This document shows, in pieces, positions 4,655 to 11,965 of a stretch of 41,502 nucleotides of DNA; the first letter of the stretch is position 1, and every line of letters starts with the position of its first letter. A program made the position numbers and the translations under genes. The DNA lies in contig JAJZYZ010000019.1 in assembly GCA_021797815.1 (NCBI GenBank), positions 1 through 41,502 of the forward strand. The letters are read 5' to 3'. Below the pieces are notes generated by a model. It saw nothing but the letters and a program-made list of their open reading frames with translations. It searched no databases and was not told the origin of the DNA. This stretch comes from Bacillota bacterium (GTDB lineage Bacteria; Bacillota; Sulfobacillia; Sulfobacillales; JAIMBI01).

Positions 4655-4805
4655 CATTTTGTGCTAGTAGGTTCAGCGGAGCCCGGGACGATTCCTGCTG
4701 CCGCTCTTTGTCTCAACAAATATTCAGTAATCAGGACGAAGCGTGACCCGGATCCGCGAGCGGGAGGCAGGGGAACGCGCATCTGTCCGCGAAGGGGGAT
4801 TATCC

Positions 4806-7800
4806 ATGACCACCGGAAAACACGCTGCCGCCTTCGGGCAGGCGCTCGAAAATCTTGCTGTCGTGATGGAAAACCGCATGCCCGCCCACGTCCACCTGGT
4901 TCCCCATCCCACCGCCGCGGAAGCGCTCATCGGGGGGACATCGCCCCGGGTCATGTCTCTAGACGGGCGCTTTCAATTTGTTCTCGTCCCGAGGCCGGGA
5001 GCGGTGCCGGAGGACCTCTTTTCGCCGCAGGCGGATCCGACAGAGGCTTCCCCGCTCTCGCCGCTTTTTTCTTCCGTATCTTTCGCCGACGTTCCCGGGC
5101 ACTGGCAGCTTCAGGGTTATGGCGCCCCTCACTACACGGATGTGCAGTACCCCTTTCCCGTGGACCCGCCCCGTCCCCCGTCGGAGAATCCGGTGGGCTG
5201 CTATCGCCGGGCATTCGTCTGGGAGCAGCCGGAGGGCACAGGGCGGACCCACGTTCGTTTTTTGGGCGTGGACAGCGCCTTTCAGGTGTGGCTGAACGAC
5301 GTGGCCGTCGGCTACAGCGAGGGAAGCCGGCTCACGGCCGAGTTTGACGTCACCGATGCTATCCGTCCGGGCGCCAATCTGCTGGTGGTGCTGGTCGCGC
5401 AGTGGTCGAAGGGCAGTTATCTGGAGGACCAGGATCAATGGTGGCTCTCCGGCATCTTCCGGAGTGTGGACCTCCTGGCCCGCCCGGCCGCCCACATCGA
5501 AGACGTATGGGTCCGCGCCGATTTCAGTCCCGCCGGGGGCCGGCTGCAGGTAACGGTCCGGCCCGCCGAAGCGGCTGACGCCGGCCCGACTGCCATCCGG
5601 TTGGCCCTCCACCATAAAGACGGCACCGTGGTCTGGTCGGAGGAGCGCCCGGCCGCGTCAGTCGAAGAAACGGTGGTGGCGGATCTGCCGGGGGTGCGCC
5701 CCTGGACCGCGGAAACCCCCTTCTGCTATGACCTTGTGGTGGAGCTTGTTGATGCCCGCTCCGGGCGTTCCCTCGAGGCGGTCCGCCAGACGGTGGGATT
5801 TCGGACCATCCGCCTCCAAGCTGGACTCTTGACCGTAAATGGCGTCCCCATCACGTTTCGGGGTGTCAACCGGCACGAGATTGACCCCGACCGCGGGCGG
5901 GGCGTGACGGTCGCTTCGATGGAGCGCGAGGTTAAGCTCATGAAGCGCCATAACATCAATGCCGTTCGGACGTCGCACTACCCGAACCATCCCGCCTTTT
6001 TGGAACTGGCCGATCGCTACGGTCTGTACCTCATCGACGAGGCCGATCTGGAGACCCACGGCATGGAGTTGTCGGACCATCCGAACTTGCTGTCGGACGA
6101 TCCCGCCTGGGAGGCGCTCTATGTGGATCGCCTGGAGCGCATGGTGGCCCGCGACCGCAACCACCCGTCGGTGATTCTCTGGTCGCTCGGCAATGAGTCG
6201 GGATTCGGCCGTAATCACCGCGCCATGGCGAAGCGGGCGCGAGTCCTCGACGACTCGCGCCTCATTCACTATGAGGGCGACCGGGACGGGGCCGTGGTGG
6301 ACGTGCTGAGCCGGATGTACCTGCCGGTAGAGCGTCTCCGCGAGGAGGGCGAACGGGAGGAGCCCCGGCCTTTCATCCTGTGTGAGTACGGGCATGCCAT
6401 GGGAAACGGACCGGGAGGACTGGAAGACTACTGGGCGGTTATCGAGAGCCTGCCCCGCCTGCAGGGCGGGTTTGTCTGGGAGTGGAAAGACCACGCGCTC
6501 CATAAGCCCGGCTACCCCGCCGACACCTACTTTTATGGCAGCGACTTCGGCACCGAGCCGAATGACGGAAGCTTCGTGGTGGATGGCCTCTTATTTCCGG
6601 ACGGACAGCCGTCGCCCGGTCTCGCCGCGCTGAAGAAGGCGATCGAGCCGATGCGGGTCATCGCGGCCGACTGGGAGCAGGCGACGCTCTCGTGCCGGAA
6701 CCGCTTCGACTTCCGATCACTGGCGGGCCTGATTCTGGAGGCGGCCGTGTACGAGGACGGCGTGCCGGCCGGGACGAGCCGGATCCCACTGCCGGACGTT
6801 CCGCCCGGCGGGTTCGGGGTGATATCGGTCCCGCTCATGAAGGAGGGGCGCGGATCGTCATCCCTCCGGTGGCTTCATGTAAGCCTGCGGGAGCCCGAAG
6901 CGACCCCGTGGGCGGAGCCCGGACATGAGATGGCCTGGGCTGACGTGATCGACCCGCGGCCGGCCGAGAGCCGCGTGACGGCGGCCGCGCCCCGCCGCCT
7001 TCCGGTTTCCGCCCGCCAGCACGGCGACCACGTGGTCGCGGCGTGCGGCGAGAGCCGCCTCACCTTTTCGACCGCCGAGGGACGCCTTGTCGCCTGGACG
7101 CACGCCGGCGTGCCGCTCATCGCGGGAAGCCCCGGCCTCACGGTCTGGCGCGCCCCCATCGACAACGACGTGCGGGCCGCGCGCCACTGGCGTGCGTACG
7201 GCGTCCACCGTCTCCTGCGCGACCTAAGACGCGTGGAAACCGTGACCGACGGGGCCGCCTTTGAGCTCCGGACCGAAGAGCGGTATGCGCCGGCGGGGTT
7301 CATGTGGGCCCTTAAGGCGACGGTCCTCTACGGCCTCCAGCCGACGGGCCGTCTGGTCATCGAGATTGAAGTCACCCCCGAAGGCGACGGGCCGGACACG
7401 CTCCCGCGCCTGGGCCTTGAATGGAGACTTCCGACCGAGTTTGCCAACACGTGCTGGCTCGGGCTCGGCCCCGAAGAGACGTATGCCGACAGCCAGGCCC
7501 AGGGGCGGCTCGGGATATTTGAGCGGACGGTGGACGAGCTCTATGTACCCTACGTAAGGCCCCAGGAACACGGAAACCACACCGGCACCCGGTCTCTCAG
7601 CGTGTCCCGCCCAGGTGGGCCGGGCCTCTTCGTGAGCGCCCCGAGCCTGTTTGACTGGAGCCTGTCCCGTTTTGGCGCCGCGGCCCTGGAGAGGGCCCGT
7701 CACCGCCACGAGCTCGAGCCGGACGCGGCCCTGCATCTCCGGCTCGACGCCGGTCAGCACGGACTCGGAAGCGCGAGCTGCGGTCCCGATCCAGAACCGG

Positions 7801-7856
7801 CGCACCGGTTTTACAACACGGCCCGCCGGTTCTCGTTCACCCTGTCCGTACGCTGA
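4806..7856 (+). CDS. lacZ: Beta-galactosidase, glycoside hydrolase family 2
   Basis: This 1016-residue protein has the length and domain order of E. coli LacZ (1023 aa): N-terminal jelly-roll sugar-binding domain, Ig-like domain, central TIM barrel, second Ig-like domain and C-terminal Bgal_small_N beta-sandwich. The barrel carries GVNRHEIDP, then HYPNHPAFLELADRYGLYLI followed by DEADLETHGM. The acid/base is E464 in WSLGNESG and the nucleophile is E527 in FILCEYGHAMGN. It hydrolyses terminal beta-galactosides such as lactose. There is no signal peptide, so the enzyme is cytoplasmic. A GTG at 4743 would add 21 residues, but the ATG at 4806 is preceded by GAAGGGGG at normal spacing and is preferred. 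No lactose permease or LacI gene is adjacent. Confidence 0.95.
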   Translation: MTTGKHAAAFGQALENLAVVMENRMPAHVHLVPHPTAAEALIGGTSPRVMSLDGRFQFVLVPRPGAVPEDLFSPQADPTEASPLSPLFSSVSFADVPGHWQLQGYGAPHYTDVQYPFPVDPPRPPSENPVGCYRRAFVWEQPEGTGRTHVRFLGVDSAFQVWLNDVAVGYSEGSRLTAEFDVTDAIRPGANLLVVLVAQWSKGSYLEDQDQWWLSGIFRSVDLLARPAAHIEDVWVRADFSPAGGRLQVTVRPAEAADAGPTAIRLALHHKDGTVVWSEERPAASVEETVVADLPGVRPWTAETPFCYDLVVELVDARSGRSLEAVRQTVGFRTIRLQAGLLTVNGVPITFRGVNRHEIDPDRGRGVTVASMEREVKLMKRHNINAVRTSHYPNHPAFLELADRYGLYLIDEADLETHGMELSDHPNLLSDDPAWEALYVDRLERMVARDRNHPSVILWSLGNESGFGRNHRAMAKRARVLDDSRLIHYEGDRDGAVVDVLSRMYLPVERLREEGEREEPRPFILCEYGHAMGNGPGGLEDYWAVIESLPRLQGGFVWEWKDHALHKPGYPADTYFYGSDFGTEPNDGSFVVDGLLFPDGQPSPGLAALKKAIEPMRVIAADWEQATLSCRNRFDFRSLAGLILEAAVYEDGVPAGTSRIPLPDVPPGGFGVISVPLMKEGRGSSSLRWLHVSLREPEATPWAEPGHEMAWADVIDPRPAESRVTAAAPRRLPVSARQHGDHVVAACGESRLTFSTAEGRLVAWTHAGVPLIAGSPGLTVWRAPIDNDVRAARHWRAYGVHRLLRDLRRVETVTDGAAFELRTEERYAPAGFMWALKATVLYGLQPTGRLVIEIEVTPEGDGPDTLPRLGLEWRLPTEFANTCWLGLGPEETYADSQAQGRLGIFERTVDELYVPYVRPQEHGNHTGTRSLSVSRPGGPGLFVSAPSLFDWSLSRFGAAALERARHRHELEPDAALHLRLDAGQHGLGSASCGPDPEPAHRFYNTARRFSFTLSVR

Positions 7857-7861
7857 GCCTG

Positions 7862-8011
7862 TCAGATGACGATGGCGGCAAAGGCCCCGAGAGCAATGCC
7901 CCCAATCAGGAGTGCCACGCCTCCCCGACGGTCTCCTCGCGGCAGGCTGATGTTCAGGATCCCGATGAAGGCGAAAACGGCGCCGAAGAACTCCAGTGCG
8001 TGCTGCTGCAT
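7862..8011 (-). CDS. Small membrane protein, 49 aa, unknown function
   Basis: The reading frame begins MQQHALEFFGAVFAFIGILN and ends ALGAFAAIVI. It encodes two hydrophobic segments (about residues 8-21 and 31-49) separated by a basic hinge containing LPRGDRRGG, a likely helical hairpin in the membrane. Translation is well supported by GGAGGGAGG seven bases before the ATG. It lies 67 nt downstream of the DHA2 exporter gene on the same strand, so it is probably the last gene of the marR-exporter transcript. It ends only 5 nt from the convergent lacZ stop. I do not recognise a family. Small helical-hairpin proteins can modulate transporters, but that role is only a guess here. Confidence 0.6.
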   Translation of the reverse strand: MQQHALEFFGAVFAFIGILNISLPRGDRRGGVALLIGGIALGAFAAIVI

Positions 8012-8078
8012 CGTCCGCCCTCCCTCCGTGCCGGCGCACGACCGTTACAGGCCGTTTCGCCGTCCGCCGCCACGTTTC

Positions 8079-9938
8079 CTACTCGCCCGCCCCCACCCCG
8101 GCCTGAGGCGTCTCCTCCGGCGTGGCTCCCAGATATTTCTCCAGCAGCATCACGGCCAGCATCCGCATCTGTCGGCGGCGCTCGGGGTCTTCCGACAGCC
8201 CCTTGCCATCGGCCGACATGAGAAGGCCCAGCGCCACGCCCAGTCGTCCGTACACCTCACGTTCGGACGGTTCCTCACGCCGCTCGCGTCCTTCCATGTC
8301 AAACGCGGACGCGCCGGAATGGCGGCGGAGGGGGATCTCGCGCAGGAACCACGTCACCACGAAGGCTATGCAGAGTAGTCCCGCGCCGGCGATGAACACC
8401 TCCTGCGTCGCAAGCGCCAGCGAAGCGCGCACCCCGGCGATGAGGGCGTGCGCCAGCGTGACGCCGGCGGGTCCGAAGCGGCTGAACACGTGCGAGAGCT
8501 GCGTGAAGGCGGCCGGGCTCAAGAGCACCGAAGGGTTGGCGATCTTGTGCAGGGCGGTTGCCGGAAGCGCCTTGGCGACCGCTGCCGGAATATGCCGGGA
8601 CAGCTCATGGGTGAAACGGCTCGTGAGCAGGGAGCCCAGGATGGCGATGCCGACGGTGCCGCCGATCGACCGGAAGAACTGCAGGGCCGCGGTGACCACG
8701 CCCATCTCCTGGAACGGAAACGCGTTCTGCACCACGATGGTGAAGAGACTCATCAGGGTGCCCATGCCGAGTCCGGTGATGACCATGTCGCGAATCACGA
8801 TCCAGTTGGTCGCGTTCACCGTCATCCGCCCCATCAGAAACATGCCCACGACCGCAATCGCGATGCTCACGATGGCGAGCCAGCGGTACTTGCCCGTTCG
8901 GGACATGATCTGCCCGCCCACCACGGCGGAAGCCATGAAGCCCAGCATCATCGGCGTCAGCACGATGCCGGAGTTGCTGGGCGAGTCTCCGATGACTCCC
9001 TGCACGAAGAGCGGAATGTACATGATGGCGCCGAACATGCCGAGCGACACGAAGAACGACCCGATCACGCTGATGGCAAAGATTCCGTTCCGGAAGAGCC
9101 GCGGAGCCAGGATCGGCTCCTCGGTCTTCGCTTCCCATAGGAAGAAGGCGAGCCAGCCAACGATGGAGACGCCAAACGAACCCAGCACCTCCCACGAACT
9201 CCAGGTGTACTGGTTTCCGGCCCACGAGAAGCCGAGCAGCATCGGCACCGCCGCCACGACCAGGATGGCAGCGCCCGCGTAGTCGATCTTGTGCGCGGAG
9301 CGCCGGTAAATGGACGGCAGCGCGACCGCGCAGAACGTCAGCGCGAGGATGCCGAGCGGCATGTTCACGTAGAACACCCAGCGCCAGCCCCACGAGTCCG
9401 TGATGGCGCCGCCTGCCCAGGGACCGATGATGCTGGCCAGGCCGAACACCGCCATCATGAGCCCCTGCCACTTGCCCCGTTCGGCCGGTGGAAAGATGTC
9501 GCCGATGATGGCCTGCACGATGGGCATCATAGCGCCGGCCCCGAGTCCCTGAATGCCCCGATAGAGAATCAGCTGGGTCATGTCCTGGGACGTTCCCGAG
9601 AGGGCCGAGCCGACCAGAAAGATGGCCATTCCGAGCATGAAGAACGGCTTGCGTCCATACACGTCCGACAATTTGCCGTAAATGGGCACCATGACCGTGG
9701 ACGCCAGCAGATAACTGGTGGTGACCCAGGCGTACTCCGTGAGACCATGCAGATCCGCGATGATGCGGGGCATGGCCGTCCCGACCACCGTCTGGTCGAC
9801 GGCGGACAGCAGCATCCCCAGCATGACCCCCACCAGGATCATGATGAGCTGTCGGGAACTCACCTGATCACGCAGGCCGCGCGACGGATCAATAATGTTG
9901 TTGCGGACCTTGCCTCGCTGTTCCATCTCTGCCGTCAC
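8079..9938 (-). CDS. DHA2-family multidrug MFS exporter (EmrB/QacA type, 14 TM)
   Basis: The protein has 619 residues and about fourteen hydrophobic segments. It begins near MEQRGKVRNNIIDPSRG before helix 1. Family landmarks are the DQTVVGTAMPRI element at the end of helix 1 (the DHA2 LD.TVVN.ALP motif), GKLSDVYGRKPFF in loop 2-3 (MFS motif A, GxLaDrxGrkxxl), and the GIQGLGAGAMMPI helix 4 motif. It should expel lipophilic or cationic compounds using the proton gradient. The C-terminal tail of about 75 residues after the last helix is charged and cytoplasmic, longer than usual. The GTG at 9938 is chosen because AAGGAGGAG precedes it and it overlaps the MarR stop codon as GTGA. The neighbouring MarR gene is the probable regulator. 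Confidence 0.9.
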   Translation of the reverse strand: MTAEMEQRGKVRNNIIDPSRGLRDQVSSRQLIMILVGVMLGMLLSAVDQTVVGTAMPRIIADLHGLTEYAWVTTSYLLASTVMVPIYGKLSDVYGRKPFFMLGMAIFLVGSALSGTSQDMTQLILYRGIQGLGAGAMMPIVQAIIGDIFPPAERGKWQGLMMAVFGLASIIGPWAGGAITDSWGWRWVFYVNMPLGILALTFCAVALPSIYRRSAHKIDYAGAAILVVAAVPMLLGFSWAGNQYTWSSWEVLGSFGVSIVGWLAFFLWEAKTEEPILAPRLFRNGIFAISVIGSFFVSLGMFGAIMYIPLFVQGVIGDSPSNSGIVLTPMMLGFMASAVVGGQIMSRTGKYRWLAIVSIAIAVVGMFLMGRMTVNATNWIVIRDMVITGLGMGTLMSLFTIVVQNAFPFQEMGVVTAALQFFRSIGGTVGIAILGSLLTSRFTHELSRHIPAAVAKALPATALHKIANPSVLLSPAAFTQLSHVFSRFGPAGVTLAHALIAGVRASLALATQEVFIAGAGLLCIAFVVTWFLREIPLRRHSGASAFDMEGRERREEPSEREVYGRLGVALGLLMSADGKGLSEDPERRRQMRMLAVMLLEKYLGATPEETPQAGVGAGE

Positions 9939-10411
9939 TGCGCCGCTCCTCCTTGAATCTCTGACGCCGCGCGGGCGCGCCCTATCGCGCGCACCACGGC
10001 GCCCAGTCCCAATTCCAAAGCCGAAAGTTCCTCGCCGTCCAGATCCAGGAGCCATCCTCGCACGAGGCGTGGGCCGAAATTCTGCACCTGCTCAAGGAGC
10101 CTCCTCCCCTCCGCCGACAGGTCGATGAGGCTGACCCGCCGATCCCGGGGATGCGGATGCCGGTCCACCAGGCCCGCATGCACCAGCCGCTCCACGATGT
10201 GACTCGCGGCCGGGAATCCGACGCCCAGCTCCTTGCCGATGGTGCCCACCGACACGTCCGGATTGCGCGCCACGACGAAGAAAGCCCGCAGCTGGGCGAG
10301 GGTCAGGTCTCCGTCGATAAGCTCCTCGTTGCGTCGCTCCTGCATGGTCACAAACAGGCGCTTCAAGTGCGCCAGCACCTGGCTCACCCGCGCGTCCCTG
10401 TCCTCGTCCAC
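9935..10411 (-). CDS. MarR-family transcriptional regulator
   Basis: This 158-residue protein shows a winged-helix MarR domain. The recognition region VSVGTIGKELGVGFPAASHIVERLVHAGLVDR is followed by the wing HPHPRDRRVSLIDLSAEGRRLLE, whose DRR.. and L...G triads are family hallmarks. Terminal helices would form the dimer interface. MarR proteins usually repress adjacent exporter genes and are released by small aromatic ligands. The exporter gene starts inside this stop codon (GTGA overlap), so the two are co-translated, and autoregulation is expected. A longer start at 10462 exists, but the GTG at 10411 has GGAGG seven bases upstream and is preferred. The ligand is unknown. Confidence 0.88.
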   Translation of the reverse strand: MDEDRDARVSQVLAHLKRLFVTMQERRNEELIDGDLTLAQLRAFFVVARNPDVSVGTIGKELGVGFPAASHIVERLVHAGLVDRHPHPRDRRVSLIDLSAEGRRLLEQVQNFGPRLVRGWLLDLDGEELSALELGLGAVVRAIGRARAASEIQGGAAQ

Positions 10412-10433
10412 CGCGACACCTCCATCGCCTTGC

Positions 10434-10468
10434 ACGATACGCCGATCATACGAGGTCGTCAATATATT
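10434..10468 (-). promoter_or_regulatory. marR promoter with AT-rich palindrome
   Basis: On the minus strand TTGACG (10457-10462) and TATCGT (10434-10439) are separated by 17 bases, a fair sigma-A promoter (5/6 and 4/6 matches). The palindrome AATATATT at 10461-10468 overlaps the -35, a natural place for MarR autorepression. The predicted start would leave only a very short leader before GGAGG at 10419-10423. Confidence 0.45.
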
Positions 10469-10643
10469 TATGCCACGAACTAAGTATCTTTGTCGAAGAG
10501 GTTCTCACGGCGGTCGGACAAGCGGGGAGAAGAGGCGCGGCCGACCGGGCGAAGAAAAGACCGCGAGAGGACCGCACGCCCGCCGCCGTCTAGGGAATGA
10601 AAGAAGACGCCCCGGCAAGCGCGGGCATACGGCGCGCCCACAT

Positions 10644-10672
10644 GGAGGAGGCGACGTGCGTCCGCCTCCTCC
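10644..10672. terminator. Hairpin downstream of odhB, probable terminator
   Basis: GGAGGAGGCG (10644-10653) pairs perfectly with CGCCTCCTCC (10663-10672) around a nine-base loop. It lies about 100 nt after the odhB stop. No T-run follows on either strand, so intrinsic termination is plausible but not proved. Confidence 0.45.
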
Positions 10673-10768
10673 GTCCACGAGGCACGCCAGCCCTGATGCG
10701 GGTGTACGGGCCCCACCGACGGTGGTCCGCGTCCGGCGTCAAGATACGGGCGTCCGGGTCCTTGACCG

Positions 10769-11965
10769 TCAGCCCTCGAGCAGGAGCCGCTCCGGATCCT
10801 CCACCAGCTGCTTTACGGTGACGAGGAAGCGCACGGCCTCCGAACCGTCCACAATCCGGTGGTCGTAGGACAGGGCGAGATACATCATGGGTCGGATCTG
10901 CACCTCGTCCTCCACCGCCATCGGGCGCTTTTGGATGGTGTGCATCCCGAGGATGGCAACCTCGCGGCCGTTCAGGATGGGCGTGGAGAACATGGATCCG
11001 AACACGCCGCCGTTCGTGATGGTGAAGGTGCCGTCTTGCAGGTCTGACAGCTGAAGCGAGTTGGTCCGCGCCTTCTCGGCCAGCCGGGCAATCTCCGCCT
11101 CGATTTCGTAGAATGCCAGGCGATCGGCGTCGCGCACCACCGGCACCACAAGCCCGCCCTCCGCCGCCACTGCGATCCCGATGTTGTAATACTGCTTTAA
11201 GACCATGTCGTCGCCATCAATCTCGGCGTTGAGGCGCGGAAACTGCTTCAAACTCGCCACCACGGCCTTGGTGAAGAATGACATGAACCCGAGGCGCACG
11301 CCGTGACGCTCCTGAATCGCCCCCCGCCAGCGGCTTCGAAGGGCCATGGCGGCCGTCATGTCCACCTCATTGAACGTGGTCAGCATGGCCGTGTTCTGCT
11401 TGGTCTCGACGAGGCGCCTCGCGATGGTGAGGCGCCGCCGGGACATCCGGACTCGCTCCACGCGCCCGCCCCCCGCGGCCGGGACAGCTGCCGGCTCGGC
11501 GGCCGGCGCGGGCGCCGGAGCTTTTTTGGCCGCCGCCGGCTCAACCGCCCGTTCCACGTCTTCGCGGCGGACCCTCCCGCCGGCCCCGGTCGCGGCCACG
11601 GACTCGATGCTTACCCCGCGCTCTTCGGCCAGCCGGCGGACGGCCGGAGTGGCCCGAACCGCCGCCTCCGCCGACACCCCTTCCACTGGGGCCGGAGCGG
11701 CCGGGGCGGCGGGAGCGGCCGCCGTGGCCCCTTCCTCGACATGACCGAGGATGTCGCCCGGCGCCACGGTGGCGCCCGGCTCGGCCTGGATGTCGGCCAG
11801 CACCCCCGAAGAGGTGGCGGCCACCTCCAGGTTCACCTTGTCGGTTTCAAGCTCCAGGAGCGGTTCGCCCATCGCGACGGGGTCGCCCACTTTCTTAAGC
11901 CAGCTGCCCACCGTCGCCTCAACCAGAGACTCTCCCAGCTGGGGCACCACCACATCAACGGCCAT
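10769..11965 (-). CDS. odhB: 2-oxoglutarate dehydrogenase E2, dihydrolipoyl succinyltransferase
   Basis: This 398-residue E2 has one N-terminal lipoyl domain (residues 1-75) with lipoylated K43 in ETDKVNLEV, an Ala/Pro linker, a peripheral subunit-binding domain near residues 110-145 ([17 protein letters not shown]), a second Ala/Pro linker and a catalytic domain. The active-site motif is SYDHRIVDG with H369 and D373. It transfers succinyl groups from lipoate to CoA in the TCA cycle and forms the core of the complex. The preceding E1 gene identifies it as the oxoglutarate rather than the pyruvate type. A longer frame exists upstream, but the ATG at 11965 has AAAGGAG six bases away and starts [14 protein letters not shown], the standard E2 N-terminus. 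It overlaps odhA by 11 nt. The E3 gene (lpd) is not in the window. Confidence 0.95.

What the first reader, a model, noticed from the sequence alone, without database searches (positions are those of the whole stretch)
7862..8011. 49-aa helical-hairpin membrane protein after a drug exporter
A short frame with a near-perfect Shine-Dalgarno site encodes two hydrophobic segments and a charged hinge. It follows the marR-DHA2 exporter genes on the same strand and would be missed by length-filtered gene callers. Small membrane proteins sometimes tune transporters, as with E. coli AcrZ and AcrB.
Basis: partly seen in the sequence, partly recalled or inferred. Interest (0 to 1): 0.5.

Follow-up and report, generated by a model that had tools for sequence, protein, structure and literature searches.

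The report
Small hairpin membrane protein beside exporter
A real 49-amino-acid membrane protein sits directly after a multidrug-type exporter gene in an uncultured Bacillota genus; in related bacteria unrelated small membrane proteins of the SPW type take the same place, so it is probably a helper of the exporter.

Summary
An ATG frame of 49 codons lies at 7862-8011 on the minus strand, with GGAGG 7 nt upstream, 67 nt after a marR-DHA2 exporter pair. It is conserved at 78% in the one congener available, without indels, dN/dS 0.125 at dS about 1.0: a gene under purifying selection. AlphaFold2 gives a two-helix hairpin.

The family is very narrow: two orthologues plus one diverged copy in the congener that is not beside an exporter. 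The window protein matches no Pfam, NCBIfam, PHROG or PADLOC family at E <= 1.

New context: of 21 exporter homologues at 58% identity or more, 17 are followed by a pair of small SPW-type membrane proteins, 2 (the window genus) by the 49-aa protein, 2 by neither. After 50 more distant homologues the automatic test found no such gene (0 of 18; 0 of 32). Neither genome of the window genus has an SPW match. Sequence tests do not link the 49-aa protein to SPW. Most likely it is an accessory subunit or modulator of the exporter, in a place held by an SPW pair in relatives. The gene is shown; the function is inferred.

The parts
7862..8011 (-). small ORF, 49 aa, helical hairpin (helices 2-22 and 28-47), conserved motif E-F-x-G ... 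I-G-x-L-N-x-x-x-P-x-G-x-R-R-G-G
8019..8027 (-). ribosome-binding site GGAGGGAGG, nearest GGAGG 7 nt before the ATG
   Evidence: read from the sequence
8012..8078 (-). 67-nt gap between the exporter stop and the small ORF; no terminator-like site reported in it
8079..9938 (-). DHA2/EmrB-type MFS exporter, 619 aa, GTG start, with a conserved C-terminal tail of about 81 residues (8082-8324)
   Evidence: (TIGR00711 260.9 bits, cut-off 230.2)
9935..10411 (-). MarR-family regulator, GTG start, GTGA overlap with the exporter start
10434..10462 (-). promoter-like site upstream of marR (1 found, 0.3 expected in shuffles); consensus match only
4743..7856 (+). convergent beta-galactosidase (GH2), ending 5 nt from the end of the small ORF; not part of the unit

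Best explanation
The frame is a real gene for a two-helix inner-membrane protein, made from the same mRNA as a MarR-controlled DHA2 exporter. Most likely it is an accessory subunit or modulator that binds the exporter in the membrane and alters its stability, assembly or substrate range, in the place where relatives of the exporter have a pair of SPW-type hairpin proteins. Shown: coding, conservation, predicted hairpin, gene order, and the recurrence of small membrane proteins at this position. Inferred: co-transcription (same strand, 67 nt, no terminator-like site between), control by MarR, membrane insertion with the RR loop in the cytoplasm (positive-inside rule), binding to the exporter, and any effect on transport.
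For: dN/dS 0.125 for the small ORF against 0.086 (exporter), 0.164 (marR) and 0.164 (beta-galactosidase) for the same genome pair. Same gene order in G001 with its own ribosome site. Hairpin model, pLDDT 87.5 in the best of five. In 14 of 14 exporter orthologues of family f3 (63-69% identity) both SPW-type genes follow the exporter (11 of the 14 first genes and 12 of the 14 second genes were also used to build the profiles). The same holds in 3 of 3 of family f18 at 60%, the second gene there by weaker matches. An automatic test for a small two-helix gene within 150 nt was positive in 13 of 16 orthologues and in 0 of 18 plus 0 of 32 more distant homologues: 50 of the 55 lower matches listed. 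G000 and G001 have no SPW match at E <= 0.001, while 31 of 42 genomes of the order do. In the exporter tree G000/G001 group with f3.
Against: Only two orthologues exist in the data, from one genus. The diverged copy in G001 (36-45% identity by different alignments) lies near a nucleoside hydrolase and a TnpB-type gene, not an exporter. The passages I read on SPW name no link to export. The predicted orientation (charged loop inside) is opposite to that suggested by the charged N-termini of the SPW hairpins, so they may not bind alike. Two exporter homologues at 58-59% (f30) have no partner, so export can do without one. Polarity is not firm: f30 groups with f18 in the tree, so one ancestral SPW pair needs a loss in f30 and another in this genus, against two separate gains. 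Terminator-like sites also occur inside marR and the exporter. No expression or binding data.
Confidence: 0.5

Rival explanations
1. A small membrane protein that is merely co-regulated by MarR: it protects or senses the membrane under the same chemical stress and does not touch the exporter.
For: The diverged copy in G001 is not next to an exporter, so the family can work alone. MarR units often hold unrelated response genes (recalled).
Against: Two kinds of small membrane protein without detectable relation occupy the position after this one exporter group, and none was found after 50 more distant homologues.
Confidence: 0.33
2. A strongly shortened SPW unit: the same family as the neighbours' proteins, worn down beyond recognition.
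For: Same position; two helices; a proline at the end of helix 1; a glycine seven residues before that proline in the three family members and in many of the SPW units, by eye (alignments). The diverged copy scores somewhat above its shuffles against an SPW-unit profile (26 of 498 reach it).
Against: Profile comparison gives 3.0%, 1.8% and 0.9% probability. The window and G001 proteins score no better than shuffles of themselves (291 and 207 of 500 reach them). No tryptophan; opposite charge pattern.
Confidence: 0.08
3. A small hydrophobic toxin-like peptide or mobile-element passenger.
For: Small and hydrophobic; the diverged copy lies next to an IS605-type TnpB gene.
Against: No PADLOC or PHROG family match for the window protein, no plasmid or phage match, no Rfam match at 7000-11500, strong ribosome site, and conserved order with the exporter.
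Confidence: 0.04
4. Not a gene: a chance open frame in GC-rich DNA.
For: Long antisense frames are common here; an overlapping plus-strand frame exists (7866-8378).
Against: Codon-position pattern 9/3/22 and dN/dS 0.125; the five other frames give 0.32 to 7.6, the lowest being one antisense frame.
Confidence: 0.02

Closest known systems
AcrZ (E. coli, 49 aa, binds AcrB)
   Same: Size; a small membrane protein linked to a multidrug exporter.
   Different: AcrZ is a single helix on an RND pump (passages of PMC10710835); this one is a hairpin next to an MFS exporter, and no binding is shown.
WatS1 (Methylomonas, 55 aa, binds the RND pump WatABO)
   Same: Small protein said to change an exporter's substrate range (passages of PMC10710835).
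   Different: Different pump class; no sequence comparison was made.
SPW family, Pfam PF03779
   Same: SPW-type genes hold the position after this exporter in 17 of 21 homologues; a two-helix unit (passages of PMC8078820).
   Different: No SPW motif and no detectable sequence relation; orientation predicted opposite.

Membership tests
Transporter-modulating small membrane proteins (AcrZ kind) | Translated protein of about 50 aa or less | tested here: inconclusive
   Coding selection shown, translation itself not observed.
Transporter-modulating small membrane proteins (AcrZ kind) | Inserted in the inner membrane | tested here: inconclusive
   Two hydrophobic helices in the model and by hydropathy; insertion not testable here.
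Transporter-modulating small membrane proteins (AcrZ kind) | Binds its transporter and changes its activity | not testable with these tools
   Needs co-purification and transport assays.
Transporter-modulating small membrane proteins (AcrZ kind) | Conserved together with the transporter | tested here: inconclusive
   Present in the genus (2 of 2); absent beside 19 of 21 exporter homologues at 58% or more, of which 17 have SPW-type genes there.
SPW repeat family PF03779 | Match to the Pfam profile | tested here: not met
   No Pfam match for the window protein at E <= 1; no SPW match in the G000 or G001 genome at E <= 0.001.
SPW repeat family PF03779 | S-P-W motif at the end of helix 1 | tested here: not met
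   The window protein has L-P-R-G there.
DHA2 exporters (for the neighbour gene) | Score above the EmrB subfamily cut-off TIGR00711 | tested here: met
   260.9 bits against 230.2.

The most novel reading that the evidence does not exclude
A branch of DHA2 exporters with a long cytoplasmic tail works with small hairpin membrane partners, usually a pair of single SPW units. One genus has swapped that pair for an unrelated 49-aa hairpin, a non-homologous replacement of an exporter subunit. This would be the first small-protein partner of a DHA2 exporter that I know of (recall; I saw passages of one review).
Probability: 0.35. Interest if true: 0.6.

Novelty: new member of a known kind. Interest (0 to 1): 0.4.

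Why it matters
Small membrane proteins are easily missed in annotation, and the review passages I saw tie none to a DHA2 exporter. If the partner role holds, this exporter group gives a testable case in which two unrelated kinds of small protein do the same job. It would also give the SPW family, for which the passages I read state no function, a first functional setting.

Tried and rejected
Homology of the 49-aa protein to the SPW proteins was tested by profile comparison and by shuffles and is not supported. A resemblance between the exporter's C-terminal tail and tail motifs of the first SPW-type protein looked striking by eye but gave 0.55% probability against 0.28% for a reversed control, so it is dropped.

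More family members were sought with the three-member profile in 154 genomes of the class and 398 of the phylum. Five marginal matches at E 0.004-0.01 (G051, G162, G228, G287, G496) are not counted: three lie in frames of 280 aa or more, one holds a stop, one covers 15 residues. The single-protein search of 61 relatives gave two more marginal ones, G060 (E 0.07, in a 77-aa frame) and G026 (E 0.08); neither is among the profile matches at E <= 0.01. Two own-genome matches at E 0.6-0.8 are not counted. Pattern scans of one genome each for 84,980 species gave none and only the congener's two copies. Viral contigs, plasmids and phages: none. The diverged copy has weak matches below cut-off (DUF4418 E 0.016; a PHROG of unknown function E 0.056). 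Searches against solved structures gave nothing meaningful (best E 0.46, best E 1.4: a bare hairpin resembles many things).

Rows dropped before counts: contig ends (L083; L093, ORF listing only; L116, L121, L125); one further match (G023:C151) starts at a contig end and was not fetched. So 50 of 55 lower matches were tested. The 18 are 14 from other genomes of the order (34-47% identity) and 4 from G000/G001. In one search the identities (24-38%) are for 3' parts only. The automatic test missed 3 of 16 orthologues (L050, L058, L060) that do carry SPW-type genes by profile. The first tree was useless for rooting because of long outgroup branches. The second also warns of long branches meeting, and the fork joining the two close groups has support 81/82. 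Literature listings showed no paper on SPW proteins beside exporters by title or abstract start.

Full report
What is there. The window is a whole contig (C140) of a 2.9-Mb genome in 142 contigs, 97.75% complete. On the minus strand it holds marR (9935-10411), a DHA2-type exporter (8079-9938) and the 49-codon frame (7862-8011). marR and the exporter overlap by GTGA. The frame starts 67 nt after the exporter stop, with GGAGG 7 nt before its ATG. A beta-galactosidase gene on the other strand ends 5 nt beyond its stop. A consensus scan of 7400-10700 gave no terminator-like site between exporter and frame and one promoter-like site, before marR; it also gave six terminator-like sites (1.7 expected) in or upstream of marR and inside the exporter, and none after the frame. 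These are consensus matches only.

It is a gene. The one congener found, G001 (public name: MAG Bacillota bacterium isolate YP2.bin78), carries the same order marR, exporter, small frame, convergent beta-galactosidase and its own ribosome site. The two frames are equally long, 78% identical, without indels. Of 34 nucleotide differences, 9, 3 and 22 fall on the first, second and third codon positions. dS is 1.0, dN 0.126, ratio 0.125; the exporter gives 0.086, marR 0.164, the beta-galactosidase 0.164. The other five frames give 0.32 to 7.6. Random placement of the same substitutions changes 20.6 +/- 2.2 residues against 11 observed, and 22% of draws create a stop. Of 857 start-to-stop frames of 30-90 aa in the window (366 distinct stops) it is the only one with both a ribosome site and two hydrophobic segments.

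What it encodes. AlphaFold2, with the three family members as alignment, gives helices 2-22 and 28-47, mean pLDDT 87.5 in the best of five models (70-74 in the others). Residues shared by all three members include E7, F8, G10, I16, G17, L19, N20, P24, G26, R28, R29, G30, G31. The charged loop suggests both ends face outward and the loop inward; this is the positive-inside rule, not a result. The window protein has no Pfam or NCBIfam match at E <= 1, nor PHROG or PADLOC.

How wide the family is. Besides the two orthologues, G001 has one diverged copy (50 aa, GTG start, 36-45% identity depending on the alignment and partner). It lies between a nucleoside hydrolase and an IS605-type TnpB gene, not beside an exporter. 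Its codon pattern against the G001 orthologue (20/14/31, dN/dS 0.25 at a saturated dS) fits a coding gene. Nothing further was found beyond marginal matches in 154 class and 398 phylum genomes, in pattern scans of 84,980 species, viral contigs, plasmids or phages.

The place after this exporter. I collected exporter homologues in the order, class and a sample of the phylum. Twenty-one have 58% identity or more: 2 in the window genus, 14 in family f3 of the order, 3 in family f18 and 2 in f30 outside it. All 14 of f3 have two further genes after the exporter by profile. The first, 127-226 aa, follows within 90 nt where the start was clear, and has one hairpin bearing S-P-W and a long polar tail; the second, 68-87 aa where the start was clear (not in G026), is another hairpin. 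Six of these proteins scanned against Pfam all match SPW (PF03779), at E 1.5e-5 to 8e-3, below the curated cut-off, so 'SPW-type' is the safe word; the two groups are related to each other at 89% probability. The 3 genomes of f18 have the same pair; their second gene matches the first-gene profile at 1e-6 to 1.5e-8 and its own profile only at 1e-4 to 4e-3. The 2 of f30 have neither and end soon after the last helix. The window genus keeps the long tail (76-86 residues in 16 exporters; two tail helices in a low-confidence exporter model, mean pLDDT 70.7) but has no SPW match in either genome (31 of 42 genomes of the order do). The tail is not a strict marker: homologues at 44-46% in G004-G006 are 764-765 aa long and have no such partner.

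Controls. An automatic search for a small two-helix gene within 150 nt found one after 13 of 16 close orthologues, after 0 of 18 more distant homologues and after 0 of 32 others, 50 of the 55 lower matches listed. None of the 35 stretches and 98 matches any of the three profiles at E <= 0.01. Of 20 further homologues from the class and phylum (L089-L108, 40-52%), none matches at E <= 0.001; L097 matches the second SPW profile at 0.004 and L106 at 0.015.

Reading. In the exporter tree the window genus stands with f3 in one supported group (100/99), and f18 with f30 in another (96/97). An ancestral SPW pair would need a loss in f30 and a replacement in this genus; two separate gains of the same pair at the same place would need fewer events but seem less likely to me. 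Horizontal transfer is not excluded, and the tree carries long-branch warnings. Tests for a hidden relation between the 49-aa protein and SPW fail. That two kinds of small membrane protein without detectable relation occupy the place after one exporter group, and not after 50 distant homologues, is the best argument for a partner role. Against it stand the copy without an exporter and the restriction to one genus.

Compared with what is known. The review passages that I saw list small proteins acting on transporters, among them AcrZ and WatS1 on RND pumps, but no small-protein partner of a DHA2 exporter (PMC10710835, 12 of 16 places shown). For SPW, the passages seen of a modelling paper describe one or two units of two transmembrane helices with the motif near the outer face, often with a degenerate second unit, and state no function (PMC8078820). 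Thus the protein is a new, very narrow small-protein family of a known general kind; membership in the AcrZ kind cannot be claimed until binding is shown. That the relatives lie near Sulfobacillus is my recall from a chromosome length, not a result.

Noticed in passing
L049-L062 and L109-L111, downstream of the exporter gene: Pairs of SPW-type genes directly after a DHA2 exporter in 17 genomes of two families; in the six Pfam hits each protein matches only about the first half of the 93-position SPW profile.
   Followed up: partly
L109 4153-4210 (orientation of the exporter): In G056 the first SPW-type gene appears to start inside the last 58 nt of the exporter gene, an overlap that suggests coupled translation.
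   Followed up: no
L009 6341-6493 and 6648-7763: The diverged copy of the small protein lies 154 nt before an IS605-type TnpB gene; by eye a GC-rich stretch with short palindromes lies between them.
   Followed up: partly
L009 5670-5909 (minus strand): An 80-aa hydrophobic frame upstream of the diverged copy on the other strand, without a Pfam match at E <= 0.001.
   Followed up: no
window 8082-8324, exporter 3' part: A conserved tail of 76-86 residues in 16 exporters, absent in the two f30 homologues that have no small partner genes; longer ends also occur in G004-G006 homologues without partners.
   Followed up: partly
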